Origin: Blautia parvula
GTDB taxonomy: Bacteria > Bacillota > Clostridia > Lachnospirales > Lachnospiraceae
Reading direction: 5' to 3'
DNA: 64,000 nt
Assembly (NCBI RefSeq): GCF_020215665.1
Contig: NZ_CP084061.1
Span: 2,574,001 to 2,638,000, forward strand
The position numbers and the translations under genes are program-made. Below are positions 3,193 to 16,443 of this stretch, piece after piece; positions within the stretch are counted from its first letter, which is position 1, and each line of letters starts with the position of its first letter. The notes below the pieces were generated by a model that saw nothing but the letters and a program-made list of their open reading frames with translations, ran no database searches and was not told the DNA's origin.

Positions 3193-3246
3193 ACCCTCAT
3201 TTTTGAACTATCCAGCGTTATTCCCGTCTCCTATCTGCGGAAGCTT
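3193..3246. repeat. Interspersed intergenic repeat, copy A
   Basis: About 54 bp from ACCCTCATTTTTGAAC to TCTGCGGAAGCTT closely matches 14618-14672, allowing a few substitutions and one indel. Both copies are intergenic and neither is coding. The function is unknown. Confidence 0.6.
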
Positions 3247-11012: not shown

Positions 11013-11294
11013 CTACCCGTAAGCCCATGTGGCAGACTGCAAAGGTATTTGCATACCTAAAAGGCCGTCCAGAATCTGCCCCAAATAAAACAGCACGTCC
11101 CGATACATCTCCATGTCATTTCCCATATACACAGACAGCATCTCCAAACCGTTTAGCATGGCCGCCCTCTTCACCTGGATATGGGTTACTTTCACCCCGA
11201 CCTCCGTGTTAATCCTCCCGGGCCTGTAATACCTTCCGGTGTTCTCCTGCACCGCCTGCCGGAATGCCTTGCTCATCGGATACAAAAACGACAC
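11013..11294 (-). pseudogene. Fragment of a phage tail protein
   Basis: A short frame preceded by GGAGG. With the TTG 8 bp after that site as start, the product begins MYPMSKAFRQAVQENTGRYY, which resembles the first residues of tail proteins of Clostridia phages (usually several hundred residues). After about 35 residues the likeness is lost and the frame ends at about 90. It appears to be a fossil of an older prophage. It is not near any other phage gene on this side of pcrA. Confidence 0.5.
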
Positions 11295-11311
11295 CTCCTT
11301 TTATGACACAC

Positions 11312-11343
11312 AAAAAGCACCAATCATTCATGACTGATGCTTT
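11312..11343 (-). terminator. Terminator of the 71-residue ORF
   Basis: AAAGCA at 11314-11319 pairs with TGCTTT at 11338-11343, with TCAT/ATGA pairing inside. On the minus strand the stem is followed by TTTTTGTGTG. Confidence 0.65.
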
Positions 11344-11390
11344 AAAATAATCTTATTTTGTTGAAAAGTAATTCACTGCAAACTATTTTT

Positions 11391-11606
11391 CTATTTTCTT
11401 TCTATCTCATCCTCAATAAGATGACTGGCAATTTCAAAAGCCTTTACACGCCTCTTAGCCAATGTAATCTGAGATTTATACCGGGAAGCATTTTCTTTTG
11501 CTTCAAACGTTTTTATCGTTTCTCTCAGCTTGTGCAGAGTTGAATCAATCTGTCTTTTCGCTTCCATTAATTCATCCATCGAATAATCCATACTCGTATT
11601 CCCCAT
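11391..11606 (-). CDS. Small helical protein of unknown function
   Basis: 71 residues, highly charged, mostly helix-forming, with heptad-like spacing of Leu and Ile between residues 12 and 65. No membrane segment or Cys motif. It has a terminator directly downstream. I do not recognise the family. It could be a small structural or regulatory protein. Confidence 0.5.
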   Translation of the reverse strand: MGNTSMDYSMDELMEAKRQIDSTLHKLRETIKTFEAKENASRYKSQITLAKRRVKAFEIASHLIEDEIERK

Positions 11607-11742
11607 TATCTCTATTCTTCCGAACTGACAATCTAATATTTATAAAAAACACAAAATATAAACTTGCAACTACTGAAAAATTTCAACTTGAAATCATGAT
11701 CTCTAAAACACTGCTTACCGCATATATGCCAGTACCGCCAGA

Positions 11743-12162
11743 TTACTTTGTTGTTTTTACATCTGTATACTTTATGACTTTAATATTTTTTTGTTTGGCA
11801 AGTGAAATTGTTTTTTCCTTACTCCCCTTAGAATTTCCGCTTCCCGATGTCAGAATAAGTTCAATTTCTTTTCCTTCAGGGAGCAGTTCCAGAATATTAT
11901 TAAAAGGTGTGGAGGGAAAGCCTGCCCAAATCGGAACCGCTACAATCACTTTTTCATACTCAGATAAATCAAACGTAACTTCTTTAATTTCTGTTTTCTT
12001 CTGCCTTCTGGCGGCAAGAGACCCACAGACATAAGCATTGAAAGTGGAACGATTCCTTTTTTCCTTTACCTCAATCAAATCGGCATCTATATCCCGTGCC
12101 GTTTTTTCAGCCAGTTCCCTCGTTTTTCCTGTATAAGAATAATAAATAATTACAGATTTCAT
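11743..12162 (-). CDS. Flavodoxin-like protein
   Basis: 139 residues from the ATG at 12162, which has an AGGGAGA site before it; the frame is open further upstream but without a plausible start. The N-terminal IIYYSYTGKTRELAEK is the FMN phosphate-binding loop of flavodoxins, and VPIWAGFPSTPFNNIL and LTSGSGNSKGS match the two loops that hold the flavin ring. It would be a one-domain electron carrier or flavin reductase. No redox partner is adjacent. Confidence 0.85.
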   Translation of the reverse strand: MKSVIIYYSYTGKTRELAEKTARDIDADLIEVKEKRNRSTFNAYVCGSLAARRQKKTEIKEVTFDLSEYEKVIVAVPIWAGFPSTPFNNILELLPEGKEIELILTSGSGNSKGSKEKTISLAKQKNIKVIKYTDVKTTK

Positions 12163-12277
12163 CCCTATCTCTCCCTTGCGCGAATATTTTTTCTGCCCCC
12201 CCCTCAAATGACCGGAGGGCTTTCCCACGACAGTGGCATATTTTTTTGAATTTACATTCTGATTTCCCGATTCTTTT

Positions 12278-12658
12278 TCATCGTTCCGATTCCTTTTGCA
12301 CAGGCGGGAACGGATTCTCCGCTGATGTATATGCATCAGGGATTGCTTCCCCTTTAAACAGAGCATCCCCATTGCGCACTAAAATATCTTTTCCTGACTC
12401 TGTCCCCCAAACGCTGTGCCCGGAGCCGGGTGCAATTACAAATCTGACATCGTCAAAATATTCCCTGTACTGGTAATGCATCTGCCATGGCACAACACCG
12501 TATTCCGGCTGCACAACCAAAACCGGAGGTGTATTCTTTTCCTTTAAGGCAGCTGTGAAATCAGGGGATTTTTCAAGTGATTCTGTATTCAGTGCATTGG
12601 AAAGATAATTCATATGTCTCATCGGTCTTCCATCTTCTGTAATTCTGCAATCCCTACT
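12278..12658 (-). pseudogene. Truncated alpha/beta hydrolase (C-terminal part)
   Basis: The frame encodes only the end of an alpha/beta-hydrolase fold: the PPVLVVQPEYGVVPW strand and turn, and the late histidine region VIAPGSGHSVWG that would hold the catalytic His. The nucleophile elbow and first half are absent. Reading upstream, the frame stays open to a TAA inside the rlmD-end copy (12657-12702), so hydrolase-like sequence begins almost exactly at that repeat. This suggests that recombination at the repeat removed the front of the gene. Confidence 0.65.
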
Positions 12659-12702
12659 AAAATCAAGATTTCCTTATGAGAAGCACGACGGTTTCAACGT
12701 GC
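12657..12702 (-). repeat. Second copy of the rlmD 3' end
   Basis: On the minus strand this stretch encodes HVETVVLLIRKS and a stop, then GATTTTAG. The genuine rlmD end (14734-14779) encodes HVETAVLLVRKP and a stop, then GATTTTAG. About 39 of 46 bases agree. The two copies enclose the helicase/nuclease gene and look like the attL/attR of an element that inserts at the end of rlmD. Confidence 0.75.
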
Positions 12703-12757
12703 GGTGAAAGTTGTCTTTTATACTACATGGCAAAAGAATTTATTATAAAAGTGCGGT

Positions 12758-12793
12758 GGGTAAGTTTAGTCTGTCCATTCACCCCACTTACCC
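12758..12793. terminator. Hairpin beside the island
   Basis: GGGTAAGT at 12758-12765 pairs with ACTTACCC at 12786-12793, followed on + by CCTTTTTAATT. It would stop + strand transcription entering the helicase/nuclease gene from the left. No + strand gene is visible here. Confidence 0.4.
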
Positions 12794-12889
12794 CTTTTTA
12801 ATTAAAATCACCCCTTTATGAAGTAATTTCCCCCTTTAATTTATCACATAAATTTTGTGATATTTAAATATGATACTATTTTTCATAGG

Positions 12890-14464
12890 TTATTTACTTA
12901 CCGACATCAATATTTGTTCAACTTTATCTAAAAGGTAATCCGATGGTTCCTCACCATTTTCCTTCATATATATCATTTTTATTAAATCATTATCATCCGA
13001 GCTAATAATTAATTTTCCACTTTCTTTTAAACACCCTAAAGATGCTTTCTGGGCATTTGAATCAAAACCTTTTCGTGAAATAATAAAAGCCACATTCCTT
13101 AGCGCGACAGGAAACAAGTATTTTTCTGTAATATATATTAAGTTTTGCGAAATGTAATCCGAATAATTTTTATATTCAAAAACAACAAATTTTGTATGAT
13201 AAAATGTTATAAGAAATTTCCAAAACTCCGTTGTCCCTTTTAACGAGCACAACAGATCCATACGGAACATCTCATCATCTGTTTTATGCTGTTCTGAAAT
13301 TTTAAAAAACTCTGTGTCAAATAGATATTTTATTATTTCTGTGCAAATTATTTCATACTTCTTATCTGCATTATCCAACCTACCCAATCTACACTTTTCC
13401 AGCTTCTCTTGAAAAACTTCTACATAAGATATTGTCTCTTCATCTATTGTAATATCATTTGTTTCTACTTTTATATTTATTGGTTTTTTTGCTTCTACTT
13501 CCAAAGTGGAGTATGGAATGCAACTTGTCAATAATTGCAATAGCTCCTTATTTTCCTCACATAAATATATCAGATTACGTATATCCCATATTTCTACATC
13601 AAATCTATCAAAAATTTCTCTTTGTGAATCTTCATCGATTTCGCATGGCATGACAATAACAAAAGAGATTTTTTCAGCTAGATTATTAGAAAGCATAATC
13701 TGTTTATATTGTAAAATTTGCTTTAAAGCATTATTAAGAATAATCTTTGAATTATATAAATTTCTGTAAGACTTCACTTCTAAAACTATTTTTTTATCTT
13801 TTTCCGCAACTATATCTGCTCGCATACTACTTTTAGGCTCGTTGGATATACTAACTTCTCTTAATATATTTTTATATCCTTGATAATCTAATAATTTTAT
13901 TAAAAAGCGCTCTATAAATTCTCTTTCAGTTATATACCCACTATAACCATCTTTTACTGCATCTTTGGTCGTATATGTATATAAACATTCTGCATCATAA
14001 AACCAATCTTCAGATGATTCTAAATTTTGCAGCACACCCAAAGCCTTTATATGTTCTATATTCAACAGTTTAAGGCAACTTTCTTTTTTTAAAAATTGAG
14101 CCTCATCACAAATCATAAAATCAAATCGACTAAAGTTCAATCTGTTTTTAATAACATCTTGATATGTCGTAATTAGAATTTTTTGTTCTTTTAGTTCACG
14201 TACATGTGTTGCTATATTCACATATTCAATCATTTGAAATACTGCAGCTTTTATCTGCTTACACAGCATAGACCTCGATGAAAGAATTAGTATAGATGCA
14301 TTATTATTTTTTAATATTGTTTGTATTGCAACCGCAATAATTAACGTTTTACCAAGCCCTGTTGATATATACATTTTGGCTTTACATTTATCAGATTTGA
14401 AAAATTCATATATATTTTCAACCGCCTCTTTTTGATAATATCGAAGATTTTCCAAATATGTCAC
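12890..14464 (-). CDS. Orphan SF2 helicase-domain protein with two PD-(D/E)XK-like nuclease domains
   Basis: 524 residues. Residues 7-145 form one helicase RecA-like domain: Walker A TGLGKT (35-40), motif Ia ILSSRSMLCKQ, TTYQD (99-103) and DEAQ (120-123). The second helicase lobe is missing. Residues ~205-300 look like a PD-(D/E)XK nuclease core (Asp217, then LEVK with Glu229 and Lys231). Residues ~365-505 look like a second one (Asp403, then FEYKN with Glu430 and Lys432). The gene is visibly AT-rich compared with its neighbours and lies alone between two rlmD-end copies, suggesting a transferred defence or restriction-type island. Function is inference; the domain reading is from motifs only. 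Confidence 0.7.
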   Translation of the reverse strand: MTYLENLRYYQKEAVENIYEFFKSDKCKAKMYISTGLGKTLIIAVAIQTILKNNNASILILSSRSMLCKQIKAAVFQMIEYVNIATHVRELKEQKILITTYQDVIKNRLNFSRFDFMICDEAQFLKKESCLKLLNIEHIKALGVLQNLESSEDWFYDAECLYTYTTKDAVKDGYSGYITEREFIERFLIKLLDYQGYKNILREVSISNEPKSSMRADIVAEKDKKIVLEVKSYRNLYNSKIILNNALKQILQYKQIMLSNNLAEKISFVIVMPCEIDEDSQREIFDRFDVEIWDIRNLIYLCEENKELLQLLTSCIPYSTLEVEAKKPINIKVETNDITIDEETISYVEVFQEKLEKCRLGRLDNADKKYEIICTEIIKYLFDTEFFKISEQHKTDDEMFRMDLLCSLKGTTEFWKFLITFYHTKFVVFEYKNYSDYISQNLIYITEKYLFPVALRNVAFIISRKGFDSNAQKASLGCLKESGKLIISSDDNDLIKMIYMKENGEEPSDYLLDKVEQILMSVSK

Positions 14465-14617
14465 TTCCCTTCTACTGCCATCCTCATGTATCTTTACCTT
14501 ACTAATTATTATCCCTTACTGTCCCTATCTAATTGCTTTAATAAGGCGATATGCCAAGATATTCACGTTTTGCTAAAGGGTATGGGTTTTGCCGGATTGT
14601 ATCTTTTGCCCAACGAA

Positions 14618-14672
14618 ACCCTCATTTTCAAACTATCCGGCGTTAACCCCGTCTCCTTATCTGCGGAAACTT
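14618..14672. repeat. Interspersed intergenic repeat, copy B
   Basis: Runs from ACCCTCATTTTCAAAC to TCTGCGGAAACTT and matches 3193-3246 in the same orientation. It lies inside the island, between the helicase/nuclease gene and the rlmD stop. Confidence 0.6.
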
Positions 14673-14733
14673 ATCCATCTCACCTTCCGCAAAAACACAA
14701 CTCCATTTTCTCCAAACAATCCCACACCCCCGC

Positions 14734-14779
14734 CTAAAATCAAGGTTTCCGCACGAGAAGCACGGCGGTTTCCACATGA
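14734..14779 (-). repeat. rlmD 3' end, original copy of the duplicated segment
   Basis: Encodes the last residues of RlmD (HVETAVLLVRKP, stop) and the following GATTTTAG. It pairs with the copy at 12657-12702. HVET carries a conserved active-site Glu of RumA-type enzymes, so an element inserting here must supply a working gene end. Confidence 0.75.
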
Positions 14780-16131
14780 ACCGTCTGACAAAACTGATCC
14801 ACACAACACACCCTCTCCACCCGATACCCATCCCTCAAAAACACTTCCAAATCCCTACTCAAACTACTGGGCTTACAAGATATATAAACCATCTTCTCCA
14901 CCCCATACTCCACAATCTTCGGCAGCGCCTTAGGATGAATCCCATCTCTCGGCGGGTCCAGCACGATGAAGTCGGGCTTCTCCTCGATCTCATCGATCAC
15001 CTTCAGCACATCCCCAGCAAAGAACCGGCAGTTGTCAATCCCATTCAGCTCTGCATTCTCCTTCGCCGCCTGCACAGCCTCCTCCACGATTTCAACCCCG
15101 ATCACCTTTTTCGCCACCGGCGAAAGTATCTGTGAAATGGTCCCTGTTCCGCTGTACAGATCAAACACGGTCATATCTTTCGTATCCCCGATATACTCCC
15201 TTGCCGTATTATACAGCACCTCTGCCCCATAAGAATTCGGCTGGAAGAAAGAAAACGGCGTCACTTTAAATTTAAGCCCCAGGATCTCCTCATAAAAATA
15301 ATCCTTCCCATACAGTATCCTGGTCTCATCGCTCTGCACCATATCAGAGAGCGCGTCATTGATAATATGAAGAAATCCCACTATCTCCCCCTCCAAAGGC
15401 AGCGCCAGCAGTTCTTCCTTCAGCGGTTCCAGATCATGTTCCTCCTGGCTTGTAGTTACCAGATTCACCAGAATCTCCCCGGTTGTATTGGCCCTTCTCA
15501 AAAGCAGGTGGCGCAGATATCCCACATGCTGCATCTTCTTATAATAACTCACATTCCTGCTCCGGAAATACTCGCCCACACACTGCAGAATCTTCGTCAT
15601 ATCCTCGTGCACCAGCTTACAGTCATAAGCATTCAGCACATCATAGGTACTTCCCTTCTTATGCAGTCCCAGCGCCAGAGGGCCGTCCTTGTATTCATCA
15701 CCGAAGGAAAACTCCATTTTATTTCTGTAAGCAAACTCCATGGGACTTCCCTTAATCCCTTCAAACACATAATCCGGGCTGCCGTCCTCATCCACCTGAC
15801 CGGCATTTACAATCACCTTGTCCAGCAGATTTTTAACCTGCTCTGCCTTCATATTAAGCTGGTCTTCATACTCCATGGTCTGATACATACAGCCGCCGCA
15901 GGCCGGGAAAATGCTGCAGACAGGTTCGCGTTTCTCCAGCGGGGATTTTTCCAGCACCTCCAGAAGACGTCCTTCCAGACGGTCTCCCCTCTTTTTATTA
16001 ATCAAAAACCGCACCTTCTGGCCCGGAATGCCATTCTTTACGGTAACGGTCCTGCCGTCTATGATGATACGTCCCTTGTTGGGGAAGTCTACTTTTTCAA
16101 TGATTCCTTCGTAAATTTCTCCTTTTTTCAA
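14740..16131 (-). CDS. rlmD: 23S rRNA (uracil-C5)-methyltransferase, RlmD/RumA family
   Basis: 463 residues from a TTG at 16131 with GGAGG 7 bp upstream. Domains in order: TRAM RNA-binding domain (1-60); Fe-S cluster cysteines in CSIFPACGGC (about 72-81); SAM-binding VFDLYSGTGT; DPPRDG; and the catalytic Cys in YISCKPSSLSRDL, with HVET at the very end. It methylates a uracil in 23S rRNA using SAM. Firmicute members may modify one or two sites, so the exact position is not assigned. The 3' end is duplicated at 12657-12702. Confidence 0.92.
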   Translation of the reverse strand: MKKGEIYEGIIEKVDFPNKGRIIIDGRTVTVKNGIPGQKVRFLINKKRGDRLEGRLLEVLEKSPLEKREPVCSIFPACGGCMYQTMEYEDQLNMKAEQVKNLLDKVIVNAGQVDEDGSPDYVFEGIKGSPMEFAYRNKMEFSFGDEYKDGPLALGLHKKGSTYDVLNAYDCKLVHEDMTKILQCVGEYFRSRNVSYYKKMQHVGYLRHLLLRRANTTGEILVNLVTTSQEEHDLEPLKEELLALPLEGEIVGFLHIINDALSDMVQSDETRILYGKDYFYEEILGLKFKVTPFSFFQPNSYGAEVLYNTAREYIGDTKDMTVFDLYSGTGTISQILSPVAKKVIGVEIVEEAVQAAKENAELNGIDNCRFFAGDVLKVIDEIEEKPDFIVLDPPRDGIHPKALPKIVEYGVEKMVYISCKPSSLSRDLEVFLRDGYRVERVCCVDQFCQTVHVETAVLLVRKP

Positions 16132-16160
16132 AACTGTTCCTCCTGATATTGTTTAACAGA

Positions 16161-16186
16161 AAAAGAAGCTCCGGTTTCCCGAAGCT
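16161..16186 (-). terminator. Terminator of the small acidic membrane protein gene
   Basis: On the minus strand, AGCTTCGG and CCGGAGCT (16186-16167) form an 8-bp stem with a GAAA tetraloop and one U-G pair, followed by TTCTTTTTCTG. Confidence 0.75.
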
Positions 16187-16200
16187 CCCTATTACTCTTT

Positions 16201-16443
16201 TTATTTGTCTTCATCCTCGTCATCGTCTTCAAAATAATCATCGAAGTCATCGTCGAAGTCCTCTTCAAAATCTTCCAGATAATCCGGAGTGAAGAAACGG
16301 TATACTGCATATGCTATTCCGGCAACAGCAGCTACTGCTCCGATGATAGCCAGAATCCATAAGACGGTATTCTTATTTTTTTCTTCTTCTTTCTTCTGTA
16401 ATGCTGTGATTAAATCCTCAATACGATTCATAGCCTGCACCAT
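16201..16443 (-). CDS. Small membrane protein with acidic tail
   Basis: 80 residues: a short basic N-terminal helix with EEEKNKN, one membrane segment (about 27-50, LWILAIIGAVAAVAGIAYAV), then a C-terminus of almost only Asp, Glu, Phe and Tyr (FEEDFDDDFDDYFEDDDEDEDK). Several starts are possible (16443 or the ATG at 16431). Similar one-helix acidic proteins are common and unnamed in Lachnospiraceae. Its position beside rlmD gives no function. Confidence 0.65.
   Translation of the reverse strand: MVQAMNRIEDLITALQKKEEEKNKNTVLWILAIIGAVAAVAGIAYAVYRFFTPDYLEDFEEDFDDDFDDYFEDDDEDEDK

What the first reader, a model, noticed from the sequence alone, without database searches (positions are those of the whole stretch)
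12890..14464. Orphan single-gene system: half helicase joined to two PD-(D/E)XK-like nuclease domains
The protein has Walker A (35-40) and DEAQ (120-123) but no second RecA lobe, and then two separate D...ExK patterns (Asp217/Glu229/Lys231 and Asp403/Glu430/Lys432). A helicase N-lobe with two nuclease cores in one chain is not an arrangement that I can assign to a known restriction or defence family. It is AT-rich, lone and inside an apparent integration site, all of which suit a compact phage-defence gene. Motifs are seen; the defence role is inference.
Basis: partly seen in the sequence, partly recalled or inferred. Interest (0 to 1): 0.82.

Follow-up and report, generated by a model that had tools for sequence, protein, structure and literature searches.

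The report
Mobile single-gene cassette with double nuclease
A 2-kilobase, apparently mobile cassette sits at the end of a ribosomal-RNA methyltransferase gene and carries one protein, half a helicase joined to two probable DNA-cutting domains, that may defend gut bacteria against phages; some related genomes hold small units with the same kind of ends, several of them with known or suspected defence genes.

Summary
The 524-aa protein has an SF2 lobe with Walker A and DEAQ, no motif III and no second lobe, then two PD-(D/E)XK cores whose triads are almost invariant in 22 homologues. The two-nuclease part is an uncharacterised module (PADLOC candidate PDC-M36A). It stands alone in prophage-like contigs and rhizobial plasmids, or is fused to a decayed SF2 lobe, TIR, methyltransferase-like or HNH domain. 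The half helicase is thus one interchangeable N-terminus, probably a sensor or gate.

The integration site is the bigger find. The gene is the only cargo of a 2,077-bp unit (12702-14778) in the last 13 codons of rlmD. The unit rewrites the RlmD tail and strands the old one at its far end. It recurs with other neighbours in Blautia schinkii (protein 94% identical) and in an IMG/VR contig (DNA 94.5%). Thirteen distinct units with such ends were delimited, 1.2-4.1 kb, several with defence genes (e.g. both DRT3 genes); one lies in the window's genome at an RlmD paralogue. In five of ten loci no RlmD-family gene was found nearby. No recombinase is in the unit; B. schinkii has a candidate cluster. 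Defence and movement in trans are inferred.

The parts
12890..14464 (-). gene of the 524-aa protein: SF2 lobe 1 + Mrr-like PD-(D/E)XK + second PD-(D/E)XK
13940..14464 (-). residues 1-175: SF2 helicase lobe 1 only; Walker A and DEAQ kept, motif III lost, no lobe 2
   Evidence: Pfam ResIII E 1.3e-15; alignment with SF2 lobes
13559..13939 (-). residues 176-302: Mrr-like PD-(D/E)XK domain, D217/E229/K231
   Evidence: weak Mrr_cat/NERD, conservation in 22 homologues, model
12893..13432 (-). residues 345-524: second PD-(D/E)XK domain, D403/E430/K432; best PDB fold match FokI
   Evidence: PADLOC PDC-M36A E 1.2e-10; model pLDDT 89.7; fold search
12702..14778 (-). the unit (cassette), core to core, 2,077 bp
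   Evidence: homology edges against L040; direct repeat
14740..14778 (-). left end: last 13 codons of rlmD including stop, supplied by the unit (HVETAVLLVRKP*); core at 14776-14778
14465..14739 (-). leader between the rlmD stop and the gene; similar DNA (some matches short or weak) in 15 of 397 family genomes, the own genome included
12697..12728 (-). right-end motif ATGTAGTATAA-n-CACCGCAY, crossing the right core (12699-12701)
   Evidence: 1 match, 0 in 100 shuffles; 12 sites in 8 of 397 family genomes, reversed control 0
12663..12701 (-). stranded rlmD tail (HVETVVLLIRKS*), 2 kb from the gene
14740..16131 (-). rlmD (23S rRNA uracil-5 methyltransferase), the target gene, still open
   Evidence: the name is recalled from family knowledge

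Best explanation
It is a non-autonomous site-specific cassette whose single gene is a gated double nuclease for defence. Movement: a serine recombinase supplied from another element joins the cassette circle to the 3' end of rlmD. The cassette's left end encodes a new RlmD tail, so the gene stays whole, and the old tail is pushed to the far end. Because the new end resembles the old one, the site may stay usable, so units can stack. Action: the two PD-(D/E)XK domains cut incoming DNA; the SF2 lobe cannot be an ordinary motor (no motif III, no lobe 2) and more likely binds DNA and ATP to sense or gate, as other N-termini in the family may do. Shown here by sequence: the edges, the stranded tail, the domain content, the conserved triads, an overall dN/dS below 0.3. 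Inferred: the recombinase and movement in trans, re-use of the site, nuclease activity, sensing by the lobe, the anti-phage role.
For: Cassette: the unit matches L040 from window 14778 to 12700 at 94.5%, while the 100-bp stretches outside are at chance (0.56 left, 0.59 right; inside 0.82 and 0.93; chance mean 0.55, maximum 0.63). Neighbours differ in three contexts: both sides in L040, the far side only in B. schinkii, where rlmD is also the near neighbour. The stranded tail reads HVETVVLLIRKS*. A second single-gene unit lies in the same genome at an RlmD paralogue, again with a stranded tail, HVETVCLLSRKSS*. In B. schinkii a small and two large serine recombinase genes begin 0.2 kb after a left-end motif; matches of 65%, 51% and 40% to the second one lie near such units in G401 and near rlmD in G012 and G034. 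Defence: PDC-M36A; other units carry both DRT3 genes, PDC-S02, HNH, TIR-Mrr; 8 of the 11 distinct units given to PADLOC had a hit, against 2 of 10 other window genes. Relatives lie in prophage-like contigs and beside TIR, QueC-like and HhH-GPD genes. dN/dS 0.26 against B. schinkii, 0.11 in the last domain. Modular N-termini.
Against: No recombinase lies in the unit, and the own genome's best match to the second large B. schinkii recombinase, the only one searched genome-wide, is 41%. No empty site was found: the DNA right of the unit has no match in 19 other genus genomes but one of 36 bp. In 5 of 10 loci with closed units no RlmD-family gene was found in the fetched stretch, not even in 20 kb and 16 kb more DNA on the upstream side of two of them, so rlmD is not shown to be the only home. 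Serine-integrase logic does not by itself explain stacking. Not all cargo is defence: the ATPase unit, the 330-aa unit and the one ORF of L071 that was tested had no PADLOC hit, and some hits are to shared domains (the AlbA unit to a pAgo profile). The Mrr-like match of the window protein is below Pfam's cut-off. The full-length model is mediocre (pLDDT 67.8). In the B. schinkii-L040 pair the Mrr-like domain has 1 synonymous and 5 other changes, ratio 1.13. No experiment exists.
Confidence: 0.66

Rival explanations
1. The units move by homologous recombination between shared rlmD ends and leaders, not by a site-specific recombinase; the 'cassette' is an exchange block.
For: No recombinase in the unit; left ends of different loci share up to about 190 bp; the own genome has no close copy of the one large recombinase searched for.
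Against: Before the right core the unit shares nothing with rlmD (6 of 30 bases), yet the edges fall at the same CAY core; the right-end motif recurs, with a reversed control of zero; units sit at two paralogous targets; recombinase genes lie near several.
Confidence: 0.2
2. The gene is a decayed fragment of a type I or III restriction subunit or another helicase-nuclease, on its way to loss.
For: Motif III and lobe 2 are missing; a homologue (P0003) has also lost the Walker lysine and DExx; two homologues carry internal stops.
Against: The frame is open in three copies; dN/dS is 0.26-0.29 in the three pairs; the triads are conserved; the same arrangement recurs at about 35% identity.
Confidence: 0.1
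3. The protein serves its mobile element (for example a homing-type nuclease that favours its own insertion, or exclusion of competing elements) rather than anti-phage defence.
For: It travels as the only cargo of a unit, and relatives lie in prophage-like contigs.
Against: Other units with the same kind of ends carry unrelated cargo, so it is not needed for movement; relatives also lie on plasmids. Exclusion of other elements remains compatible.
Confidence: 0.15

Closest known systems
PADLOC candidate PDC-M36A (uncharacterised)
   Same: The last domain matches the profile (E 1.2e-10, residues 345-503); P0003 and P0006 match too.
   Different: The match covers positions 279-435 of 457; P0004 and P0005 gave no PDC-M36A hit; the SF2 lobe is outside the matched stretch. 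The name did not occur in the papers listed.
Mrr-type and FokI-like PD-(D/E)XK nucleases
   Same: Middle domain Mrr_cat-like; the last domain's best PDB fold match is FokI (probability 1.00, TMq 0.51), with Nt.BspD6I further down; MspJI appears with the full model.
   Different: Two cores in one chain, a single RecA-like lobe in front, no known recognition domain; the fold list also holds RPB5 and clamp-loader chains.
Shedu (SduA) nucleases with varied sensor domains
   Same: A nuclease core behind interchangeable N-termini (recalled; only a search listing of papers that hold the phrase was seen).
   Different: No DUF4263-type match at E up to 1; two nuclease domains instead of one.
SCC / Enterococcus cassette chromosome elements at rlmH
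   Same: Insertion in the 3' region of an RNA methyltransferase gene, att direct repeats, large serine recombinases, variable cargo (PMC6222049, passages read).
   Different: Target is rlmD or a paralogue, not rlmH; units are 1.2-4.1 kb; this unit has no recombinase. The ECC in the passage is 32 kb and carries ccrAB; tandem ECCs with several ccrAB were not observed directly there.
Streptococcal ICEs/IMEs and C. difficile CTn5 in rumA (= rlmD)
   Same: Same target gene, serine integrases; the gene's 3' part is exchanged (PMC4701971, PMC5357655, PMC4320837, passages read).
   Different: Those elements carry their own integrase and conjugation or mobilisation genes; serine-integrase triplets there target mutT, traG and hsdM.
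CIME (cis-mobilizable elements)
   Same: att-flanked unit without an integrase (definition recalled; search listing only).
   Different: Here small units with different single cargoes recur in several genomes.

Membership tests
PADLOC PDC-M36A | significant match over most of the profile | tested here: inconclusive
   E 1.2e-10 but only positions 279-435 of 457
PD-(D/E)XK nuclease superfamily (second domain) | fold match and D...ExK triad | tested here: met
   FokI probability 1.00, TMq 0.51, E 2.3e-3 (moderate; no PDB match at E 0.001); D403, E430, K432
PD-(D/E)XK nuclease superfamily (middle domain) | Mrr_cat profile and D...ExK triad | tested here: met
   triad residues in 20-22 of 22; Mrr_cat above cut-off in P0004, P0005, P0006, but below it in the window protein
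SF1/SF2 helicase | two RecA-like lobes with motifs I-VI | tested here: not met
   lobe 1 only; motif III absent
Type I / III restriction R subunit | complete motor plus nuclease, with partner genes | tested here: not met
   no lobe 2; no other gene in the unit
Shedu | DUF4263 nuclease domain | tested here: not met
   no such Pfam hit at E up to 1
RecB/Cas4-like nuclease | QxxxY motif after ExK (recalled) | tested here: not met
   Q440 in 20 of 22 but Y444 in only 13 of 22
CIME | att sites at both ends, no integrase inside | tested here: met
CIME | mobilised by a partner element | not testable with these tools
   needs cells; candidate partners only in relatives
SCC / ECC | insertion at rlmH with ccr genes | tested here: not met
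   target is rlmD; no recombinase in the unit
Integron cassette | attC sites and an IntI tyrosine integrase | not tested
   no integron tool or profile was run

The most novel reading that the evidence does not exclude
RlmD-family genes in Lachnospiraceae-type bacteria act as platforms of a serine-recombinase cassette system that works like an integron for immunity: one defence system per small unit, each unit bearing a mimic of the RlmD tail that keeps the host gene whole and restores the target, so that units can be stacked, swapped and shared, powered by recombinases in trans. Within it, a family of double nucleases has its front module exchanged (SF2 lobe, TIR, methyltransferase-like, HNH) to change what triggers it. 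(Probability lowered from 0.45 to 0.40 on checking, because in 5 of 10 loci no RlmD-family gene was found nearby.)
Probability: 0.4. Interest if true: 0.88.

Novelty: new variant of a known kind. Interest (0 to 1): 0.7.

Why it matters
Defence genes are known to be gained and lost fast, but how single systems move is often unclear. Here the unit can be cut out to the base: same ends, same core, often one system, in a gene whose tail the unit rewrites. That makes capture, order and exchange of defence systems directly testable, and gives a marker (right-end motif plus RlmD tail) to mine for uncharacterised defence genes. The protein also poses a clear question: what does a helicase lobe that cannot be an ordinary motor do in front of two seemingly intact nucleases?

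Tried and rejected
No tRNA in the window, no Rfam match in 12400-15000, promoter scan at chance in 12600-14800 (16 against 12.6). Close homologues are rare: 1 of 20 in the genus, the window itself. In 397 family genomes 36 have any match: the window, one other full-length (L004), five in the nuclease part (L005-L009, two with stops), and, of the rest, nearly all are short matches in the helicase lobe. Class: 16 of 391 genomes, all but the window and L024 weak (E 2.8e-7 to 8.5e-4). PDB profile search with the nuclease module: nothing below E 0.18. Phage records: 9 hits, all in the helicase lobe. An alignment mixing helicase fragments with the whole protein misaligned them and was dropped; the structure job used 12 rows. 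QxxxY as a RecB-type signature was rejected. An empty site in the genus was sought and not found. The VIA library was unavailable. Paper searches for rlmD integration, serine-recombinase defence cassettes, PDC names and CIMEs listed no description of such units; titles and abstract starts were seen, and subscription papers are not held, so this is weak evidence of novelty.

Full report
What is there. The ORF 12890-14464 (-) encodes 524 residues from GTG. Pfam gives ResIII at residues 6-122 (E 1.3e-15) and weak NERD and Mrr_cat at 176-301; PADLOC gives PDC-M36A at 345-503 (E 1.2e-10). Aligned with SF2 lobes, the N-terminus runs to the end of lobe 1, keeps Walker A and DEAQ, lacks the TATP motif III and has no lobe 2. 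GC is 0.28-0.30 over the gene, 0.42-0.51 in 12000-12749 and 14500-16249, and 0.34-0.39 in 11250-12249.

The nuclease part is the family's core. Near copies are B. schinkii L002 (protein 94%) and IMG/VR contig L040 (93%); a metagenome bin contig, L003, holds only the last 33 codons with the same DNA after them as L040. One full-length homologue at about 35% (L004) keeps the arrangement, but its lobe has lost the Walker lysine and DExx. Others have the same two domains behind a TIR domain (L005, TIR_2 E 2.4e-4, below the cut-off; L006, E 2.1e-7), a C5-methyltransferase-like domain (L007, E 6.6e-20; where the catalytic PCQ is expected, a recalled motif, it reads ADLTNMPIF) or an HNH (L009, with a stop inside). 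The core stands alone at 337-372 residues in L024, rhizobial plasmids and prophage-like contigs. In an alignment of 22 proteins the triads are nearly invariant: D217 22, E229 20, K231 21, D403 22, E430 21, K432 22, each of 22. The 22 include near-identical groups (window/L002/L040; L134/L136) and several similar prophage proteins, so independent lines are fewer.

Structure. The full-length model (12 rows) has pLDDT 67.8 and pTM 0.45, the lobe mostly 60-69 at best and under 50 in 1-38 and 126-178. Its PDB matches are mostly SF2 proteins, with four at E 0.001 or better (Mtr4, RadD, XPB, Hel308), RadD aligning over about 146 columns in some rows, MspJI (E 1.4e-3), and XisH (2okf, TMt 0.66). The last domain alone gives pLDDT 89.7 and pTM 0.87. 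Its best PDB match is FokI (probability 1.00, TMq 0.51, E 2.3e-3); Nt.BspD6I follows at TMq 0.53; RPB5 and clamp-loader chains fill much of the list; none reaches E 0.001. The best match in the viral library is named 'Restriction endonuclease' (E 1.9e-4), RPB5 of a giant virus being second. The last domain is thus a PD-(D/E)XK fold, FokI-like at moderate similarity. The middle domain was not folded on its own.

Selection. Window against B. schinkii: dN/dS 0.26; lobe 0.46, Mrr-like 0.23, last domain 0.11. Window against L040 0.29; B. schinkii against L040 0.29, with 1.13 in the Mrr-like domain on 1 synonymous and 5 other changes. Counts are small (28.5 and 32.5 changes for the first pair).

The unit. 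rlmD ends at 14740. A repeat pairs 12641-12701 with 14718-14778 (77% over 61 bases). The region matches L040 from window 14778 to 12700 at 94.5%. Core to core it is 2,077 bp here, 2,082 in L040, 2,058 in L002. Against L040 the 100 bp outside are at chance (0.56 left, 0.59 right) and inside are 0.82 and 0.93; against L002 the left outside is rlmD itself (0.74) and the right outside is 0.59. The frame at the left core reads HVETAVLLVRKP*, the RlmD tail in place; at the right core it reads HVETVVLLIRKS*, a stranded RlmD tail. The unit's left 36 bases match the stranded tail at 29 of 36, while the 30 bases before the two cores match at 6 of 30. That is what exchange at a short core predicts.

Other units. 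A leader DNA search hit 15 of 397 family genomes, the own genome included and some matches weak; 13 stretches from 12 hit regions and neighbours were then read. Taking a left-end core motif at both edges as closure, 13 distinct units of 1.2-4.1 kb are closed: this one; an ATPase unit in the same genome; DUF4238 and RhuM-like units in B. schinkii; a 330-aa Mrr_cat unit (L066); an AlbA unit, a DRT3 unit and a methyltransferase + TIR-Mrr unit (L067); PDC-S02 (L068); HNH (L069); an unknown + DUF1016-like unit (L071); a YhcG_C unit (L074); T5orf172 + PDC-S02 (L075) (RhuM and DUF1016 names for the B. schinkii and L071 ORFs are by appearance). The ATGTAGTATAA right end, or one variant base of it, lies at the right edge of 11 of the 13; the RhuM-like unit and the 330-aa unit end otherwise. 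Of the 13, 11 had at least one protein given to PADLOC and 8 had a hit; the misses are the ATPase, the 330-aa unit and L071 (one of two ORFs given). Some hits are to shared domains: the AlbA protein hits a pAgo profile. As a yardstick, 10 other genes of the window gave 2 hits, one weak (LacI-like, E 3.6e-4) and one for rlmD itself (E 3.6e-25). Both DRT3 genes are in one unit: Drt3a E 2.3e-48, Drt3b E 5.8e-121. Gabija genes (GajA E 8.9e-103, GajB E 4.9e-92) lie in the same 20-kb stretch as rlmD in L073, some 13 kb from it, and Cas3-like ORFs (by appearance) follow a junction in L069; neither is in a counted unit.

The site. The right-end motif occurs once in the window (0 in 100 shuffles) and at 12 sites in 8 of 397 family genomes, with 0 for the reversed control. 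Two of the 12 are in the window's genome; the second follows an RlmD paralogue (36% to RlmD), with one 525-aa gene and a stranded tail HVETVCLLSRKSS*. The closed units lie in ten loci. An RlmD-family gene is next to them in five: the window, L002, and, with paralogues of about 36%, L234, L069 and L075. In the other five (L066/L040, L067, L068, L071, L074) none was found in the fetched stretch, nor in a further 20 kb before L067 and 16 kb before L068. These may be long arrays, moved blocks or other targets; the DRT3 unit is among them. In the genus, 19 of 20 genomes gave a close rlmD. Of these, 4 could not be used and one is the window; of the other 14, 13 share no more than 0.63 identity with the window in the 150 bases after the core (shuffles: mean 0.47, maximum 0.63) and one, G008, shares 0.92, against 0.73-0.89 in the 300 bases before it. 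The RlmD tail is thus a turnover point, though what replaced it in each genome was not worked out.

The recombinase. In B. schinkii a left-end motif at L002 13151 is followed within 0.2 kb by a small resolvase-type gene and two large serine recombinases with Resolvase, Recombinase and zinc-ribbon domains. A 65% match to the second lies about 8 kb from the L068 units in G401, a 51% match 1.4 kb after rlmD in G012 (L122), and a 40% match in L073, also an rlmD locus. In a search with that second recombinase alone, the window's genome has at best a 41% match, far away. The enzyme is therefore inferred.

Known relatives of the idea. rumA (= rlmD) is a known target of serine integrases of streptococcal ICEs and IMEs and of CTn5 in C. 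difficile (PMC4701971, PMC5357655, PMC4320837; passages read). SCC and ECC elements insert in the 3' region of rlmH by ccr serine recombinases (PMC6222049, passages read). The papers listed gave no description of small defence units at rlmD. I rate it a new variant of a known kind.

Host. The tools name no organism for the window. The near copy in B. schinkii suggests Lachnospiraceae (inference, taxonomy recalled).

Noticed in passing
L234 1572-3434 (G000:C1, about 5.317-5.319 Mb): Second single-gene unit in the window's own genome, at an RlmD paralogue: a 525-aa protein with a P-loop-like GEKGTGKT and no Pfam or PADLOC match.
   Followed up: partly
window 3193-3246: Remnant-like copy (80% over about 55 bases) of the leader, with no unit seen around it.
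   Followed up: no
window 12278-12622: A 114-aa ORF faintly resembling the end of an alpha/beta hydrolase (E 0.04-0.07) just beyond the stranded tail; perhaps a truncated gene.
   Followed up: no
L069 from 3797; L236 (reverse strand) from about 1 kb: CRISPR-Cas type I-like ORFs (Cas3-like and others, by appearance only) after the same junction motif in two genomes.
   Followed up: no
L066 5523, L070 1882, L074 17128, L076 18006, L240 7730 and 13682: Other right ends before the same core (for example ...CACTCAATA...CTTCAACA), hinting at a second recombinase specificity for the same target.
   Followed up: no
L117 (G008) after rlmD: Vsr and a C5 methyltransferase directly after rlmD behind a leader like the window's, then phage-like ORFs.
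   Followed up: partly
L041 2496-6846: Rhizobium plasmid: the stand-alone double nuclease follows TIR, HhH-GPD, QueC-like and TIR genes, an operon-like set that may be a defence system of its own.
   Followed up: no
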